From positions 25,883 through 89,882 of IMG/VR virus record IMGVR_UViG_3300032242_003075: a stretch of 64,000 bases of DNA; one strand, 5' to 3'. Under the pieces are notes generated by a model that was not told the DNA's origin, searched no databases, and saw only the letters and a list, made by a program, of their open reading frames with translations. Shown in pieces: positions 18,266-36,425 of this stretch; position 1 is the first letter of the stretch; each line of letters starts with the position of its first letter. The DNA is from a virus. The position numbers and the translations under genes are program-made.

Positions 18266-19648
18266 ATGATAGTAAGCACAGAATTTCATACTGAGGATTC
18301 CTCATTGCTTATTTCCTATTATAATGCAGAAGGACTTTTAGAATTGATTAAGAAACCAATTCTACCTCATGATCTCTTTAACTGGACATTAACTCCAAAT
18401 CCAAGCGAGTTTAGGAACTGGGATGATAGGTTTCTTAAAAAGACCCAAGGCAAATGGTTAAGCCGATTCAGGCTTGAGGAACTGACTCAGACTAGACTTA
18501 GCGAGTCTGAATTAGCCGCAATCTACTCGGATTACAGCCCTAAGAAGTACTACCTGGATATTGAGATTCAATTAACATCAAATGAGTTTCCGGATCCGGC
18601 AAAAGCAGCAATGCCCGTTAATTTAATAACCTTTGTGAACGAGGAAAACATTTGCTTCATACTATCGACCATGAAGCATCTAGAAAAGCCAGCAATTGAA
18701 CAGATGCAATCAGAGGTGAACGATTACTTTAAATCGCATAACCAGAATTTCACTCTTAAGTACCTATTTTTTGAACAGGAGGAAGAGCTATTAAAGATGT
18801 TCTTTCATAAGGCTCTACCTAAAATTCCTTTATTAACAGGTTGGAACGTTATTGGGTTTGACTGGGTTTACCTAATTAATCGATGCAAGAATTTAGGTAT
18901 CGACCCGATGGAAACCATGCCTTCCAAAACTTTGATCGGTAAAAGTAAAATGCCAACTCACTTAGGCCTACTTGACTACATGGAAGTTTTCATGAACACT
19001 AAACCTTACAAAGTCGTTGAGAATTATAAGTTAGACTACATTGCTAACCTGGTTCTTGGAACCACCAAACTTCATAGCGAGTATGCTACAATGATCGAGG
19101 CTCAACAAGATATTGAAAATTTCATCAAGTATAACATAATAGATACGGTTCTGGTTAAATTGATTGAGGATAAGCTTGGCTTGCTTGACGTTGCGTTTGC
19201 AATCTCTAAATTTGCAAAGGTTGACGTGTCCAAGGTGTTTAGCGCCGTGTACATCACCGAGACATTAATGTGTCGTGAATTCTTAGAAAGGGGTCGATAC
19301 ATGGCAAATGATCGTCGAGACGTTCAGGAGGAGGCTACCTATGTAGGAGCATACGTTGCAAAACCTGTGCCGGGTTACTACAAGTACGTATCTTGCTTTG
19401 ACTTTGCTTCGATGTACCCAAACATCCAAATACAGTTTAACATTTCACCGGATGCATACTTAGGTAAAATTCAAGAAGGTCAGACCATTCAAGATGATCA
19501 AATCTTAACAAAGAACAATACAGTATTTTCTAAAAAGACCGATTCGGCTGCTAGAACGATCTTAACTAGGCTGTATAACGGTCGTGTTGATACTAAGGCC
19601 GAGATGAAAAAATTAGAAGAACAACTGACTGGTGCTAAAGTTGCTTAA
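18266..19648 (+). CDS. 43A: Family B DNA polymerase, N-terminal half (split gene 43)
   Basis: This 460-aa protein covers the N-terminal and 3'-5' exonuclease domains and the start of the palm. Visible are YYLDIEIQLTS (Exo I), TGWNVIGFDWVYLINR (Exo II), IENFIKYNIIDTVLV (Exo III) and CFDFASMYPNIQIQFNIS (polymerase motif A). It stops about 70 residues after motif A, before the fingers helix (motif B) and the catalytic YxDTDS of motif C, which should occupy another 400 residues or so. The following sequence in other frames is unrelated. The polymerase is therefore split, with the C-terminal half outside this window, or the gene is broken. Confidence 0.88.
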   Translation: MIVSTEFHTEDSSLLISYYNAEGLLELIKKPILPHDLFNWTLTPNPSEFRNWDDRFLKKTQGKWLSRFRLEELTQTRLSESELAAIYSDYSPKKYYLDIEIQLTSNEFPDPAKAAMPVNLITFVNEENICFILSTMKHLEKPAIEQMQSEVNDYFKSHNQNFTLKYLFFEQEEELLKMFFHKALPKIPLLTGWNVIGFDWVYLINRCKNLGIDPMETMPSKTLIGKSKMPTHLGLLDYMEVFMNTKPYKVVENYKLDYIANLVLGTTKLHSEYATMIEAQQDIENFIKYNIIDTVLVKLIEDKLGLLDVAFAISKFAKVDVSKVFSAVYITETLMCREFLERGRYMANDRRDVQEEATYVGAYVAKPVPGYYKYVSCFDFASMYPNIQIQFNISPDAYLGKIQEGQTIQDDQILTKNNTVFSKKTDSAARTILTRLYNGRVDTKAEMKKLEEQLTGAKVA

Positions 19649-20919: not shown

Positions 20920-21810
20920 ATGGCAAAAACACCAATGGACGCATTCGCCAAGTTTAACGACTTGCTCGAAAAGAAAGTCAAGTCCAAAATAGACATCAAG
21001 GGATTTTCAGACATTGATGAATACATCCCAACCGGTAATTACCTCTTAAATGCTCAAATGTCAGGCTCTTTGTTCGGAGGTTATCCGAACACTCGAAGCA
21101 TTGGTATCGCCGGTGACTCAGGTTCAGGTAAAACGTTCTTGTGCTTGAATGCCGTACGTGAACTTCAAAAGCTAGGATACGTAGTTTTCTATATCGATAC
21201 TGAGGGAGCTATTGACCGATCTGACTATCTTAAATTTGGAGTCGATCTTGACAAGCTCACTTACCTTCGTATGGGTTACATTAGCGAGGTTAAATTTTTC
21301 ATTAACGATTTCATTGAAACTATGAAAGAAAATCCAGGTTTAAAAGTTGCAATATTTGTTGACTCGGTGGGGATGTTAGACACAGACAAGAGTAAAAGGG
21401 ACATGGAGGCCGGTAAAAACGCCGCTGACATGGGTCTTCGCTCAAAGGAGATGAGATCTCTTTTTAAATCGTTCACCCTTGAGCTTTCAAATTTACGAGT
21501 GCCATTTATTTTTACGAATCACACTTACGCTTGCCTTTTAGGAGACCATAAAATTCTAACACATCAAGGTGAACTTATGATTTCTGAACTTAAAGTAGGA
21601 CAATTAGTAGAAACTTTAGAAGGTTTAAAACCTATTGAAAACATATTTCAATACGATTGTCCAAAATTGATTGAAATAGTATTAGAGGATGACACAGTTA
21701 TCAAGTGTACGCCTAATCATAAGTTTTTAATCGGCGATGATTGGTCAAATGAAGATCATTGGGTAGAAGCAATGGATTTAATTGATGGAGCTGAAATAGT
21801 TTATAAATAA
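20920..21810 (+). CDS. uvsX: UvsX recombinase N-terminal part fused to split-intein N-fragment
   Basis: Residues 1-204 are the N-terminal part of a RecA/UvsX strand-exchange protein, with Walker A GIAGDSGSGKTFL, YIDTEGAIDRSDY, Walker B-like VAIFVDSVGMLD, and FTNHTYA at the break. Residue 205 is Cys and opens an intein: CLLGDHKILTHQGEL (block A) and IKCTPNHKFLIGDD (block B), ending at TAA after a 92-residue fragment. The C-terminal fragment lies at 22896. Trans-splicing would join NHTYA to SMDQYTPKG and give a 397-aa UvsX, close to T4 UvsX (391 aa). Without splicing the protein lacks the L2/C-terminal half and should be inactive. Confidence 0.93.
   Translation: MAKTPMDAFAKFNDLLEKKVKSKIDIKGFSDIDEYIPTGNYLLNAQMSGSLFGGYPNTRSIGIAGDSGSGKTFLCLNAVRELQKLGYVVFYIDTEGAIDRSDYLKFGVDLDKLTYLRMGYISEVKFFINDFIETMKENPGLKVAIFVDSVGMLDTDKSKRDMEAGKNAADMGLRSKEMRSLFKSFTLELSNLRVPFIFTNHTYACLLGDHKILTHQGELMISELKVGQLVETLEGLKPIENIFQYDCPKLIEIVLEDDTVIKCTPNHKFLIGDDWSNEDHWVEAMDLIDGAEIVYK
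21802..21809 (+). promoter_or_regulatory. Late promoter octamer TATAAATA at the end of IntN
   Basis: A perfect TATAAATA overlaps the last codons and stop of the IntN reading frame, 42 bases before the endonuclease ATG. Transcription should start close to the 5' arm of the following hairpin. Confidence 0.6.
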
Positions 21811-21815
21811 AAAAT

Positions 21816-21858
21816 TCTTGCATGTCTGTGATATATAAAAATAAAGGGACATGCAAGA
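21816..21858 (+). promoter_or_regulatory. Hairpin sequestering the homing endonuclease start codon
   Basis: TCTTGCATGTC and GACATGCAAGA are perfect 11-bp inverted repeats, and the endonuclease ATG (21851-21853) lies inside the 3' arm. Read-through transcripts from uvsX should fold this stem and hide the start. The loop is A/T-rich (ATATATAAAAATAAAG). T4 homing endonuclease genes such as I-TevI use a comparable early-hairpin/late-promoter device. Confidence 0.7.
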
Positions 21859-22903
21859 TTTTTTACAACGAATTATAACATCATCAAATCTAGGATTAGC
21901 GTCTCTATCTAAGTCGATTCGAAAAGATCGAGAATTTTATGATTTCTTAATTTCACAAACTTCATTTCTTTCAGAAAATGCAAACGTTCCATTTAGACTA
22001 TATCATATTAGGCAAGGATTAACTGAACAAGTTAGATGTAAACACTGCAAAAATCGATTGTTTAAAATTAGAATTGAATTCTGTAATAGGAAATGTGCAG
22101 CTATGTTTAATAGCAGATTAATTGAAGTTCAGAAAAAGAGATCAAATTCATTAATCGAATCTTTCAGTAAAAAGACAGATTCTGAAAAACTTGAAACTCG
22201 TAAAAAACGTGAATCTACTAATTTAGCGAAAGGCGGGCATGTTTCGAATCTTCATTCAGTTGAAGGAAAACAAAAAGTCAAAGAAACTTTCATTTCTAAA
22301 TATGGATATGAAAACCCAAATACAAATTCATCAATTAAGGCAAAAATTTCAGCTGCAAATAAATTAACCTCAAATCATGCTTTAGTTGTACGTAAGAGCA
22401 CCTGTTTAGAAAGATATGGTGTTGATAATGTTATGAAAACTCAAGAGGTTAAAGATAAAATAAAAGAGACTTGCTTTTCTAAATACGGCTCACAAAGCCA
22501 CATGCAAAATGACAAGTTCTTAGAAAAATTTTTTAATGAATATCACAAAAGGTACAAATCTAAAGACTATGTATTACCTAGCGGAAAAACAGTTAAATTA
22601 CTAGGATATGAACCTCACGTATTGGACTATTTATTGACTAAATTTAATGAGTCTGACATAATTATCGGGTATTCAGCATACCGAAAAATAAAATGTAACT
22701 ACATTCAAACTGGAAAAACCCATCGATATATACCAGATTTCTATATTGAGTCAAAAAATTTAGTAATCGAAGTTAAATCAAACTATACGTACAATTTCGC
22801 TGATCCAAATAAGAGAAAGTCAGTACAAGAAAAAGGAATCAACTTTGTTTATGCAGTAGTTGATATAAAGAAAAAGAAAATATCATTTAATCGTTATGAA
22901 TAA
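21851..22903 (+). CDS. Homing endonuclease, PD-(D/E)xK type, between the split-intein halves
   Basis: The 350-aa product has a Cys pair/Cys pair element (RCKHCKNR, FCNRKCAAMF) near residues 60-80. Tandem DNA-recognition-like motifs of the form YG-x-x-N follow, with NTNSSIKAKI and ERYGVDNVMKTQEVKDKIKE and SKYGSQSHMQN. The C-terminal nuclease core is YIPDFYIESKNLVIEVKSNY, a PD...E-V-K signature. It presumably cleaves intein-free uvsX alleles to spread the element. Its 3' end overlaps the IntC start by 8 bases. Related repeat motifs occur in the endonuclease at 34716. Translation is probably controlled by the start-codon hairpin. Confidence 0.87.
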   Translation: MQDFLQRIITSSNLGLASLSKSIRKDREFYDFLISQTSFLSENANVPFRLYHIRQGLTEQVRCKHCKNRLFKIRIEFCNRKCAAMFNSRLIEVQKKRSNSLIESFSKKTDSEKLETRKKRESTNLAKGGHVSNLHSVEGKQKVKETFISKYGYENPNTNSSIKAKISAANKLTSNHALVVRKSTCLERYGVDNVMKTQEVKDKIKETCFSKYGSQSHMQNDKFLEKFFNEYHKRYKSKDYVLPSGKTVKLLGYEPHVLDYLLTKFNESDIIIGYSAYRKIKCNYIQTGKTHRYIPDFYIESKNLVIEVKSNYTYNFADPNKRKSVQEKGINFVYAVVDIKKKKISFNRYE

Positions 22904-23594
22904 AATTAAAATTAAATCAGTAAAAGTCATTGAAAATTCTGAAAAAGTGTATGACATACAAGTAAAAGATGTGCATCACTACATCCTATCAAACAGGGTA
23001 GTTTCGCATAACTCAATGGATCAGTACACACCAAAGGGCATGTCCGGTGGTGGAGGTCCTGAATTCTCCGCATCAATCATTTTAATGTTGAGCAAGGGAA
23101 CTCTTCGAGATGAAAGTAAGACGACTACTGGTATAATTGTAAGATCAAAAACGAAAAAGAACAGATTAGCCAAACCCATTGATATTGAGTTTCACATATC
23201 GTTTCATAAGGGTATGAATCCTTACGTCGGGCTGGAACAATTTGTTAATTGGGAAAATTGCGGAATAGTTAGGGGTTCAAAATTAACCGAAAAGGAATTC
23301 AATAAGCTTAAACCTGAGGATCAGGCCAAATGTCATACGTTTGAAGTGAATGGGGAAACTTTCTACGTTAAACCGAGCATTCAAGCTAAGAACTTCATCG
23401 TTAGAGGAACCGGTGCGGAAGTCCCAGTAAGAGAATTTTTCTCAGCCAAGCTATTCACCGATGCAGTGCTAAAAGAATTGGACGAAAAGATAATTCAGCC
23501 AACCTTCAAATTCCCGGAAGGTCAAGAGGGCATAAATGTCATGGAAACTGATGAACTTGAGAACTTAACTGATACCTCAGACAATGATCTTTAA
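22896..23594 (+). CDS. uvsX: Split-intein C-fragment fused to UvsX C-terminal part
   Basis: Residues 1-39 are IntC: KVYDIQVKDVHHYILSN (block F) and RVVSHN (block G with the penultimate His and terminal Asn). Residue 40 is Ser, the +1 nucleophile. The remaining 193 residues continue UvsX from SMDQYTPKGMSGGGGPEFSA, equivalent to the T4 stretch after NHT. The rest includes IILMLSKGTLRDE and a typical acidic C-terminus (LENLTDTSDNDL). The product is required for active recombinase after trans-splicing. Translation starts inside the end of the endonuclease gene, so it may be coupled to it, and the 3' end overlaps the next gene by 11 bases. Confidence 0.92.
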   Translation: MNKIKIKSVKVIENSEKVYDIQVKDVHHYILSNRVVSHNSMDQYTPKGMSGGGGPEFSASIILMLSKGTLRDESKTTTGIIVRSKTKKNRLAKPIDIEFHISFHKGMNPYVGLEQFVNWENCGIVRGSKLTEKEFNKLKPEDQAKCHTFEVNGETFYVKPSIQAKNFIVRGTGAEVPVREFFSAKLFTDAVLKELDEKIIQPTFKFPEGQEGINVMETDELENLTDTSDNDL

Positions 23595-34715: not shown

Positions 34716-36425
34716 TTATAAATTATCGGCTGACCATTCAAATTTCCAATTACCGCATTCAAATGTTCGGTATAGACCCCTTTCGTGCATTATCTGAAGT
34801 TCAGTTTTAGTTGGGTCCTCGCCCTGTAGAACAAGCTTGTGTTTCATGAAGTTATTCCTGGGCATCCTGATTCCGTTGACCACCCACGAATACGAATTTG
34901 ATCTACCCAATAGCTTAAATCCAAGTTTATGATACACGGTACAGGTTGGATCCGGTGAAATGTCTACGTCGCAAAAGCTTATCACCCGGGCAGGTCCTAT
35001 TTCTCGTACGAATCTTGAGAATAACTTTGAGGCTCCTCCTATTACTGACGTGTTCAACTTTGTGCAAAGTCGTTCAAGCTCCCAAATTTCGGACTTTCTG
35101 ACGAATGTCATGACCTCAACTAATTCTGACTCGTAGAACAGGCCGTATGCAATCGTACATCTCTTTCCTCCCTTTAAATGATTTTCCTCGCAAAAATCCT
35201 TTGCCTTTTTCGAATCCATTCTATCGATGGTGCATTTTCTTGCGAATATTCTCGATTTGGACATCCCCACAAAGTTATTAATCATGCTCTCAACTATCGG
35301 TCTTTTGGTTGACCAGTCATCTTCCCAGACATGATGTAGTTTTATTCCATGTGAATGAGCTAGCATCGTTTTATTAATGTGGTATTGAGAAGGTTTTTCC
35401 ATTTCACTATGCCAGTAAGTTCCGTTAAATTCAATCGCAATCATTTCTTTCGGTAAAAAAATGTCCAATTCTGTTCCCTTTAAAACGTATTTTCTATTTA
35501 ATAGAACGTTAGGGCCGTATACTGATATGACGTAATCAGCTAAACTTTTTTCAGCCTTTGAGAATCTTCTGTTTGATATGTCTGACTTATTACAGAAAGG
35601 GCAAGGATCAGCGCCTCTTCTTAGCTTAACGTTAACGCATGAATTTGCAAGCACGAACGAGTTACTGCATTTATTGCACAGTAATGAATAGTACTGAGTT
35701 GTAGTATCGTGATCAACTAATTCAATCTGGTAGGACTTTAACTTGGCTGAGGCAGCGATTGCTAGCTTGATCTTATTTGATTTTCCAACCTTACTTGAAA
35801 TTTCTGGGCTTTTAGCAGCATTTTCAAAACCGTACCTACTTAAATTAGTATCTTTGGTTTTTTTAATACCAAGCATGTTTAACGTTCCCTGAGAATCAAT
35901 CGTTGACTGCTGTTGTTTTTTTAATATATCATAATTCTGTAAAGCATGTTTAGCTCCATACCTCTCAACCATGGTCTTTTCCATAGATTCTCTCGGTTTT
36001 CCGGACCAATTGTGCTCAGAACCGTATCGTTCCATCATGGTTTTTCGGTAATTATCCCTAGTTGATTTCAGCTTGGTTGGATGATCAACTCCGTGCTTAA
36101 GCATGGTGCTTTCCCTTAAAGTTAGTAGGCGATTACTATCAATGCATGATTTATCCCCACATGTCTCTAAGTAGCCTTTAGAATATGTATTGAATTTTCT
36201 AAGTTTACCGCATTCGCATCTAACTCCATTTTCTGAGTTGACGATGGACCATAATATCTGCTGTGGATTGTCAGGTACTTGAAACTTATTGATTAAAAAA
36301 TCTTTAAACTCTTTGTCCTTTCTTAATATGGTCAATTCGCTTTGAATTCTAACGTTTGCCATTTTTTTCTCTAATAGTTTCTCCCTGAGTGAATCTAGTT
36401 TTTCTTGATTAGTTAGAGGTTCCAT
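34716..36425 (-). CDS. Homing endonuclease, Vsr/DUF559-like core (569 aa)
   Basis: The N-terminal part carries a Cys-rich element (GVRCECGKLRKF, GDKSCIDSN) and tandem recognition motifs (LKHGVDHPTKLKS, ERYGSEHNWSGK, ERYGAKHALQN, SRYGFENAAKSPEI). A second zinc-like element is LLCNKCSNSF with DPCPFCNKS. The nuclease core is KGTELDIFLPKEMIAIEFNG followed by YWHSE. The C-terminal ~200 residues (KAKDFCEENHLKGGKRC, IGGASKLFSRFVREIG, VYHKLGFKLLG) form an extra domain seen in some phage endonucleases. It lies next to the major capsid gene with its own late promoter and follows that gene's terminator, so it is a self-contained mobile gene. Confidence 0.82.
   Translation of the reverse strand: MEPLTNQEKLDSLREKLLEKKMANVRIQSELTILRKDKEFKDFLINKFQVPDNPQQILWSIVNSENGVRCECGKLRKFNTYSKGYLETCGDKSCIDSNRLLTLRESTMLKHGVDHPTKLKSTRDNYRKTMMERYGSEHNWSGKPRESMEKTMVERYGAKHALQNYDILKKQQQSTIDSQGTLNMLGIKKTKDTNLSRYGFENAAKSPEISSKVGKSNKIKLAIAASAKLKSYQIELVDHDTTTQYYSLLCNKCSNSFVLANSCVNVKLRRGADPCPFCNKSDISNRRFSKAEKSLADYVISVYGPNVLLNRKYVLKGTELDIFLPKEMIAIEFNGTYWHSEMEKPSQYHINKTMLAHSHGIKLHHVWEDDWSTKRPIVESMINNFVGMSKSRIFARKCTIDRMDSKKAKDFCEENHLKGGKRCTIAYGLFYESELVEVMTFVRKSEIWELERLCTKLNTSVIGGASKLFSRFVREIGPARVISFCDVDISPDPTCTVYHKLGFKLLGRSNSYSWVVNGIRMPRNNFMKHKLVLQGEDPTKTELQIMHERGLYRTFECGNWKFEWSADNL

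What the first reader, a model, noticed from the sequence alone, without database searches (positions are those of the whole stretch)
20920..23594. uvsX split by a trans-splicing intein with a free-standing PD-(D/E)xK endonuclease between the halves
Seen: IntN (Cys205, 92 aa, blocks A and B) ends with a stop; a separate endonuclease gene follows; IntC (39 aa, blocks F and G, His-Asn then Ser) opens the next gene. The joined exteins give a 397-aa UvsX with an uninterrupted RecA-type sequence. Known: phage 'fractured genes' with split inteins and Vsr-like endonucleases have been reported from metagenomes, and their inteins include some of the fastest known. The uvsX position and this sequence may be new. 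An essential recombinase depending on trans-splicing is striking.
Basis: partly seen in the sequence, partly recalled or inferred. Interest (0 to 1): 0.87.

Follow-up and report, generated by a model that had tools for sequence, protein, structure and literature searches.

The report
Phage recombinase gene split by trans-splicing intein
A phage DNA-recombination gene (uvsX) is broken into two genes by a mobile element; each half carries one half of a self-splicing protein (an intein) that should stitch the two products back together, a known kind of arrangement found here at a new spot, with relatives in phages that grow on laboratory E. coli.

Summary
UvsX residues 1-204 plus a 92-aa IntN, a 350-aa endonuclease, then a 39-aa IntC plus UvsX 193 aa. 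Eighty intact relatives (77-86% identical) all read straight through NHTYA-SMDQYTPKG, so the empty site is real. Splicing residues are conserved and all parts are under purifying selection. A second phage (L002) carries the same insert. Between the two phages the insert keeps synonymous-site similarity (z 6.7) that uvsX and its neighbours have lost (z 0.3-1.7), so it moved between phages as a unit. The endonuclease is DUF7487/PD-(D/E)xK, not Vsr. Its start codon lies in an 11-bp hairpin that is absent from loci without the endonuclease. At the same site other phages have the split intein with this endonuclease, an unrelated one, a remnant, or none. Fracture of uvsX is not unique: at least 12 cultured T4-like phages, including coliphages ELT1 and HY03, have it about 15 residues downstream, and two viral contigs have uvsX in three pieces. 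'Essential' is overstated: uvsX is dispensable in T6. Verdict: real; a new member of the known 'fractured gene' kind. Splicing itself is inferred, not shown.

The parts
20920..21531 (+). UvsX N-extein, residues 1-204 (Walker A/B ATPase core up to ..FIFTNHTYA)
   Evidence: 85% identical over the joined protein to L002 UvsX
21532..21810 (+). IntN, 92 aa, Cys1, block B CTPNH; stop 21808-21810
   Evidence: TIGR01445 205-271, 2.5e-6; pN/pS 0.17 against L002; GC 31% against 41% in the N-extein
21802..21809 (+). TATAAATA, T4-late-promoter-like; overlaps the IntN stop and is not conserved in L002/L100. A weaker copy (GATATATA) is in the hairpin loop, where L002/L100 have GATAAATA
   Evidence: suggestive only
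21816..21858 (+). RNA hairpin, perfect 11-bp arms 21816-21826 and 21848-21858; endonuclease start codon (21851) lies in the 3' arm
   Evidence: -19.6 kcal/mol, z -5.5, 0 of 200 shuffles as stable; similar hairpins in L100, L105, L109; absent in endonuclease-free L103 and L102
21851..22903 (+). Free-standing homing endonuclease, 350 aa: N-terminal Zn-finger-like/helical DNA-binding region, DUF7487 repeats, C-terminal PD-(D/E)xK nuclease (E254, P295-D296, E307-V-K309)
   Evidence: PF24308 2e-40; PHROG homing endonuclease; catalytic residues invariant in 7 relatives; pN/pS 0.27
22896..23012 (+). IntC, 39 aa, block F VYDIQVKDVHHYIL, block G VVSHN; start overlaps the endonuclease stop (ATGAATAA)
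   Evidence: TIGR01443, 1.1e-5; pN/pS 0.08
23013..23594 (+). UvsX C-extein, 193 aa, +1 residue Ser

Best explanation
A mobile element (split class-1 intein plus homing endonuclease gene) sits in uvsX at the start of the L2 DNA-binding loop, a stretch that all 80 intact relatives keep. Two polypeptides are made; IntN and IntC associate, fold into a Hint domain, and join UvsX residues 204 and 205 (Ala-Ser) while excising themselves, giving an intact 397-aa recombinase (inferred). The endonuclease cuts intein-free uvsX in a co-infecting phage near the junction, and repair copies the whole IntN-endonuclease-IntC cassette across (horizontal movement of the cassette shown statistically; cleavage inferred). 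A hairpin over the endonuclease start codon, with a late-promoter-like loop, keeps its translation low on long early transcripts (structure shown, function inferred by analogy with I-TevI and mobE).
For: Exact anatomy and intein models. 80 of 80 intact relatives show the empty site. Conserved Cys1, block F and His-Asn|Ser/Thr in 16 split loci. Purifying selection on IntN, endonuclease, IntC and both exteins. Insert is AT-richer (28-31% GC) than flanking uvsX (about 40%). Identical codons at conserved residues, window against L002: insert 0.646 against 0.508 expected from codon usage (z 6.7); exteins 0.448 against 0.409 (z 1.7), helicase z 0.3, polymerase z 0.8: the insert moved between lineages as one unit. 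L103 and L102 keep complete splicing residues without any endonuclease gene, which is hard to explain unless splicing is needed. Hairpin linked to presence of the endonuclease. The hairpin and late-promoter mechanism is established for I-TevI, with similar arrangements for I-TevII, I-TevIII, segB and mobE (PMC2988022).
Against: No splicing or cleavage data for this sequence. The window's record is probably a fragment, so a second uvsX outside it cannot be excluded. No significant co-conversion tract next to the junction (near 16/27, far 130/299 identical codons, p 0.16). The hairpin is weak in L002 (-5.6 kcal/mol, z -0.5), and the exact TATAAATA is not conserved.
Confidence: 0.88

Rival explanations
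1. Genes-in-pieces without splicing: the two UvsX halves associate non-covalently and work as a two-subunit enzyme, the intein tails being vestigial (as HEG-split NrdA of phage Aeh1 works without splicing).
For: Such a case is known (Friedrich et al. 2007, cited in PMC10448857). The same phage group has a B-family DNA polymerase in separate N and C pieces without an intein.
Against: IntN and IntC are under strong purifying selection (pN/pS 0.17 and 0.08); all splicing residues are kept, even at loci that have lost the endonuclease (L103, L102). The break lies inside the RecA core at the L2 loop.
Confidence: 0.06
2. UvsX inactivated and selfish remnant only: the phage relies on host RecA, or on another recombinase elsewhere in the genome.
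For: uvsX is dispensable in T6 (PMC13096335) and absent in some T4-like phages (PMC3037559). The window's record is incomplete.
Against: Both extein halves show pN/pS 0.12. No second uvsX in the 89.9-kb record; one uvsX only in each of five related records with fractured uvsX.
Confidence: 0.04
3. Assembly artefact or chimera.
For: The window is an uncultured viral contig.
Against: The same three-gene arrangement at the same codon is found in independent contigs from other metagenomes (L002, L100), with purifying selection on all parts.
Confidence: 0.01

Closest known systems
Fractured genes: split inteins with a free-standing endonuclease gene (Dassa et al. 2009, NAR 37:2560; not held here, known from citations and memory)
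   Same: Conserved DNA-metabolism enzyme split into two genes by IntN / endonuclease / IntC; phage; typical split point; joined intein is similar to the gp41-1 intein in the PDB (2.9e-5)
   Different: Host gene here is uvsX at NHTYA|S; endonuclease is DUF7487/PD-(D/E)xK rather than Vsr-like. Whether that paper listed a UvsX case could not be checked.
AceL NrdHF split class 3 intein (PMC7891396)
   Same: Fractured-gene organisation from a phage-like contig with an endonuclease between the halves; IntN 98 / IntC 48 aa
   Different: Class 3 chemistry (no Cys1), GIY-YIG endonuclease, ribonucleotide reductase host
Fractured uvsX of cultured T4-like phages (ELT1, HY03, pSe_SNUABM_01, Pm5461, PM2, TG1, Thanatos-1 and others)
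   Same: Same host gene, same IntN/endonuclease/IntC order, IntN 96-97 and IntC 35 aa; hairpin upstream of the endonuclease in those examined
   Different: Insertion about 15 residues downstream (GG|TG, +1 Thr); GIY-YIG/NUMOD-type endonucleases; inteins 34-38% identical to the window's; mostly annotated as two 'recombination proteins'
I-TevI / mobE regulated homing endonucleases of T4-like phages (PMC2988022)
   Same: Hairpin over the endonuclease translation start with a late-promoter-like loop
   Different: Those lie in group I introns or between genes; this phage has almost no Shine-Dalgarno sites, so control would act on the start codon and A-rich leader
Mycobacterial RecA inteins
   Same: Intein in a RecA-family recombinase
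   Different: Continuous, cis-splicing, with a LAGLIDADG domain inside; other sites (from general knowledge)

Membership tests
Fractured gene with split intein | Conserved gene split into two ORFs carrying IntN and IntC at one site | tested here: met
Fractured gene with split intein | Free-standing endonuclease gene between the halves | tested here: met
Fractured gene with split intein | Protein trans-splicing yields the full enzyme | not testable with these tools
   needs co-expression or proteomics
Class 1 intein (Hint) | Cys/Ser1, block B TxxH, block F, C-terminal His-Asn, +1 Ser/Thr/Cys | tested here: met
   CLLGD.., CTPNH, VYDIQVKDVHHYIL, SHN|S; Cys1 and His-Asn|Ser/Thr conserved in 16 loci
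DUF7487 / PD-(D/E)xK homing endonuclease | PF24308 match over cut-off and PD..(D/E)xK catalytic residues | tested here: met
   139.5 bits against cut-off 27; E254, P295, D296, E307, K309 invariant in 7 sequences. AlphaFold model pLDDT 77; PDB matches only weak, best 4e-3, to cap-snatching endonucleases, which from general knowledge share the PD-(D/E)xK fold
DUF7487 / PD-(D/E)xK homing endonuclease | Site-specific cleavage of the empty site | not testable with these tools
   needs purified enzyme
Vsr-like homing endonuclease of fractured genes | Vsr-type match | tested here: not met
   no Vsr match for P0002 at E<=0.01; the endonuclease at the P-loop site of L105 does match weakly (0.0052)
GIY-YIG homing endonuclease | GIY-YIG domain | tested here: not met
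   no match for P0002; present in Thanatos-1
I-TevI-type hairpin control | Hairpin sequestering translation start, late promoter in or next to it | tested here: inconclusive
   hairpin met (z -5.5); promoter only consensus-like

The most novel reading that the evidence does not exclude
UvsX is a recurrent target for split-intein fracture: three sites (P-loop, NHTYA|S, GG|TG) have been hit in distantly related phages. At one of these sites the split intein outlives a turnover of endonucleases (DUF7487, HNH-like, remnant, none), so the split becomes a fixed, selected part of the recombinase, ending in a UvsX assembled from three polypeptides by two different split inteins (L105, L109). Because phage homing itself uses UvsX or RecA, the element may be coupled to the activity of the gene it breaks.
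Probability: 0.35. Interest if true: 0.72.

Novelty: new member of a known kind. Interest (0 to 1): 0.52.

Why it matters
It shows that the fractured-gene arrangement, mostly known from metagenomes, also affects the central recombinase of T4-like phages and is present in phages that grow on laboratory E. coli (ELT1 on K-12 MG1655). Whether fractured genes are really spliced during infection, and how split inteins persist once their endonuclease is gone, can therefore be tested in a standard phage system. The loci also supply several new natural split inteins that could serve protein engineering.

Tried and rejected
Dassa 2009 full text is not held, so whether UvsX is among its enzyme types stays open; a full-text search found no paper joining split intein and uvsX, and the papers with 'intein' plus 'uvsX' that were opened did not report it. 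Intein-only and endonuclease-only scans of viral contigs found one relative each; the junction pattern search worked far better; its hits L104 and L111 were discarded as non-intein. Co-conversion tract test not significant. Sigma-70 and terminator scan found nothing beyond chance. AlphaFold of the UvsX-IntN precursor was poor (pLDDT 60) and was not used. Translational coupling of IntC to the endonuclease was considered because the genes overlap and IntC lacks a Shine-Dalgarno site, but 47 of 51 genes examined lack one, so this says little.

Full report
OBSERVATION. The three ORFs are exactly as described. P0001 (20920-21810) carries UvsX residues 1-204 and a 92-aa IntN that starts at Cys205 and ends in a stop. 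P0002 (21851-22903) is a 350-aa endonuclease. P0003 (22896-23594) opens with a 39-aa IntC ending His-Asn, followed by Ser and the rest of UvsX. NCBIfam places the intein N-terminus at residue 205 and the intein C-terminal signature at residues 17-40, both above the curated cut-offs. The joined intein finds solved inteins, among them Pho RadA (3e-7) and the fast split intein gp41-1 (2.9e-5).

EMPTY SITE. A scan of IMG/VR with the joined UvsX returned 80 uninterrupted homologues, 77-86% identical. All 80 read FTNHTYASMDQYTPKG(M/I) through the site, in ORFs of 397-413 codons counted from the upstream stop. In a RecA alignment the site falls just after the NQIR motif, at the start of what is known as the L2 DNA-binding loop. 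Neither half alone has a complete RecA core.

SAME ELEMENT ELSEWHERE. L002 (131-kb contig) has the same IntN, endonuclease and IntC at the same codon. Between the two phages all five parts are under purifying selection (pN/pS: N-extein 0.12, IntN 0.17, endonuclease 0.27, IntC 0.08, C-extein 0.12). The insert is 28-31% GC in the window against about 40% in flanking uvsX. At conserved residues the share of identical codons in the insert is 0.646 against 0.508 for codon-usage shuffles (z 6.7). For the UvsX exteins it is 0.448 against 0.409 (z 1.7), for the helicase z 0.3 and for the polymerase fragment z 0.8. The insert was therefore shared more recently than the surrounding genes diverged, which is the footprint expected of homing. 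A co-conversion tract beside the junction could not be shown (p 0.16).

A SERIES AT ONE SITE. A junction pattern (T-N-H-T-Y-A-C) found more split inteins at this codon. L100 (same sequence in L106, L107) has a DUF7487 endonuclease 51% identical to the window's. L103 has UvsX about 88% identical to the window's over the aligned part and no endonuclease gene: IntC starts 17 bases after the IntN stop. L102 (same sequence in L110) also has none, and its spacer resembles the start of the endonuclease leader of L105 and L109 (shuffle p about 0.003), which suggests endonuclease loss. L109 has a 97-aa remnant. L105 has a full gene with the same N-terminal and DUF7487 region but a different, HNH-like C-terminus (and inspection). 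Splicing residues are intact in all of them. This is the best indirect argument that trans-splicing is needed: the intein is maintained when no endonuclease remains.

OTHER SITES IN UVSX. At least 12 cultured T4-like phages (among them coliphages ELT1 and HY03, Salmonella SEA1, Proteus Pm5461, Yersinia TG1, Shewanella Thanatos-1, Vibrio vB_VmeM-32) have uvsX broken by IntN / endonuclease / IntC at GG|TG, about 15 residues downstream of the window's site. These inteins are 34-38% identical to the window's; several of the endonucleases carry NUMOD3 and, in Thanatos-1, GIY-YIG domains. The records mostly annotate the halves as two recombination proteins; one notes HintC. Salicola phage SCTP-2 has two continuous inteins in one UvsX, at the P-loop and at GG|SG. 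In L105 and L109 uvsX is in three pieces: a P-loop split intein with a 26-28-aa IntN and a Vsr-like endonuclease, plus the NHTYA split intein.

ENDONUCLEASE. P0002 matches DUF7487 (2e-40) and, weakly, TnsA-like and phage endonuclease I models. E254, P295-D296 and E307-x-K309 are invariant in seven relatives. The AlphaFold model has alternating strands and helices in its confident C-terminal part, as expected of PD-(D/E)xK; PDB matches are weak and to cap-snatching endonucleases, known to share that fold; viral library matches are HJR/MutH-type and DUF7487 nucleases. It is not a Vsr match.

CONTROL ELEMENT. The 40-base gap between IntN and the endonuclease holds most of a perfect 11-bp hairpin whose 3' arm contains the endonuclease start codon (-19.6 kcal/mol, z -5.5). 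L100, L105 and L109 have hairpins with different stem sequences (z -4.8 to -6.7); L002's is weak; endonuclease-free L103 and L102 have none. The loops are A-rich with T4-late-promoter-like motifs (GATAAATA in L002 and L100, TATAAATA in L105). Similar TATAAATA motifs lie 20-35 bases upstream of several genes on the strand that carries the structural genes, above the shuffled mean but not beyond its range. Hairpin control with a late promoter is established for I-TevI, with similar arrangements for I-TevII, I-TevIII, segB and mobE (PMC2988022). Shine-Dalgarno motifs are nearly absent in this phage (4 of 51 genes against 2.4 by chance) and leaders are A-rich, as in phages of Bacteroidota (inference), so control here would act on the start codon rather than on a Shine-Dalgarno site.

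WHAT IS SHOWN AND WHAT IS INFERRED. Shown: anatomy, empty site, conservation, selection, horizontal movement of the whole insert, endonuclease-linked hairpin, recurrence. Inferred: trans-splicing, cleavage and homing, late expression. The word 'essential' in the finding is not supported: T6 uvsX deletion mutants propagate (PMC13096335), and three T4-like phages lack uvsX (PMC3037559). Since phage homing uses UvsX or RecA (PMC2988022), the element sits in a gene that its own spread may need.

VERDICT. Real, well explained, and a new member of a known kind (fractured genes), with a site and endonuclease type for which no earlier report was found in the papers available here. The strongest added value is the set of cultured phages with the same logic and the series with endonuclease loss and double fracture.

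Noticed in passing
L105 2089-6516 and L109 5787-9490: uvsX in three pieces: a P-loop split intein with a very short IntN (26-28 aa) and a Vsr-like endonuclease, plus a second split intein at NHTYA; two trans-splicing reactions would be needed for one recombinase.
   Followed up: partly
L085, L087-L097, L099 (public phage records): Cultured T4-like phages with uvsX split by an intein at GG|TG, mostly annotated as two separate recombination proteins with a homing endonuclease between them.
   Followed up: yes
window 18266-19648: B-family DNA polymerase gene ends after 460 aa in the palm domain and no C-terminal half was found in the 89.9-kb record; L002 is the same (474 aa, no C-half in 131 kb). 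In L105 and L109 a separate 392-aa C-half lies just upstream of uvsX. A polymerase in two polypeptides without an intein.
   Followed up: partly
window 34716-36425, minus strand: Second homing endonuclease (569 aa, HNH/PHROG 3339) next to the major head protein gene, with TATAAATA 35 bases upstream.
   Followed up: no
L086 1212-3182 (Salicola phage SCTP-2): UvsX with two continuous inteins in one protein, at the P-loop and at GG|SG, unannotated.
   Followed up: partly
L136 1855-3861; L168 5644-8183; L098: Further fractured genes with split inteins: a UvsW-like helicase (L136), PolB with a Vsr-like endonuclease (L168), and ribonucleotide reductase of a 462-kb phage with a Vsr-like endonuclease (L098).
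   Followed up: no
window, all genes: Almost no Shine-Dalgarno motifs and A-rich leaders, which points to a Bacteroidota-type host.
   Followed up: partly
fold search of P0002: Structural relatives of the DUF7487 endonuclease are listed from large eukaryotic viruses (Klosneuvirus, Marseillevirus, iridescent viruses).
   Followed up: no
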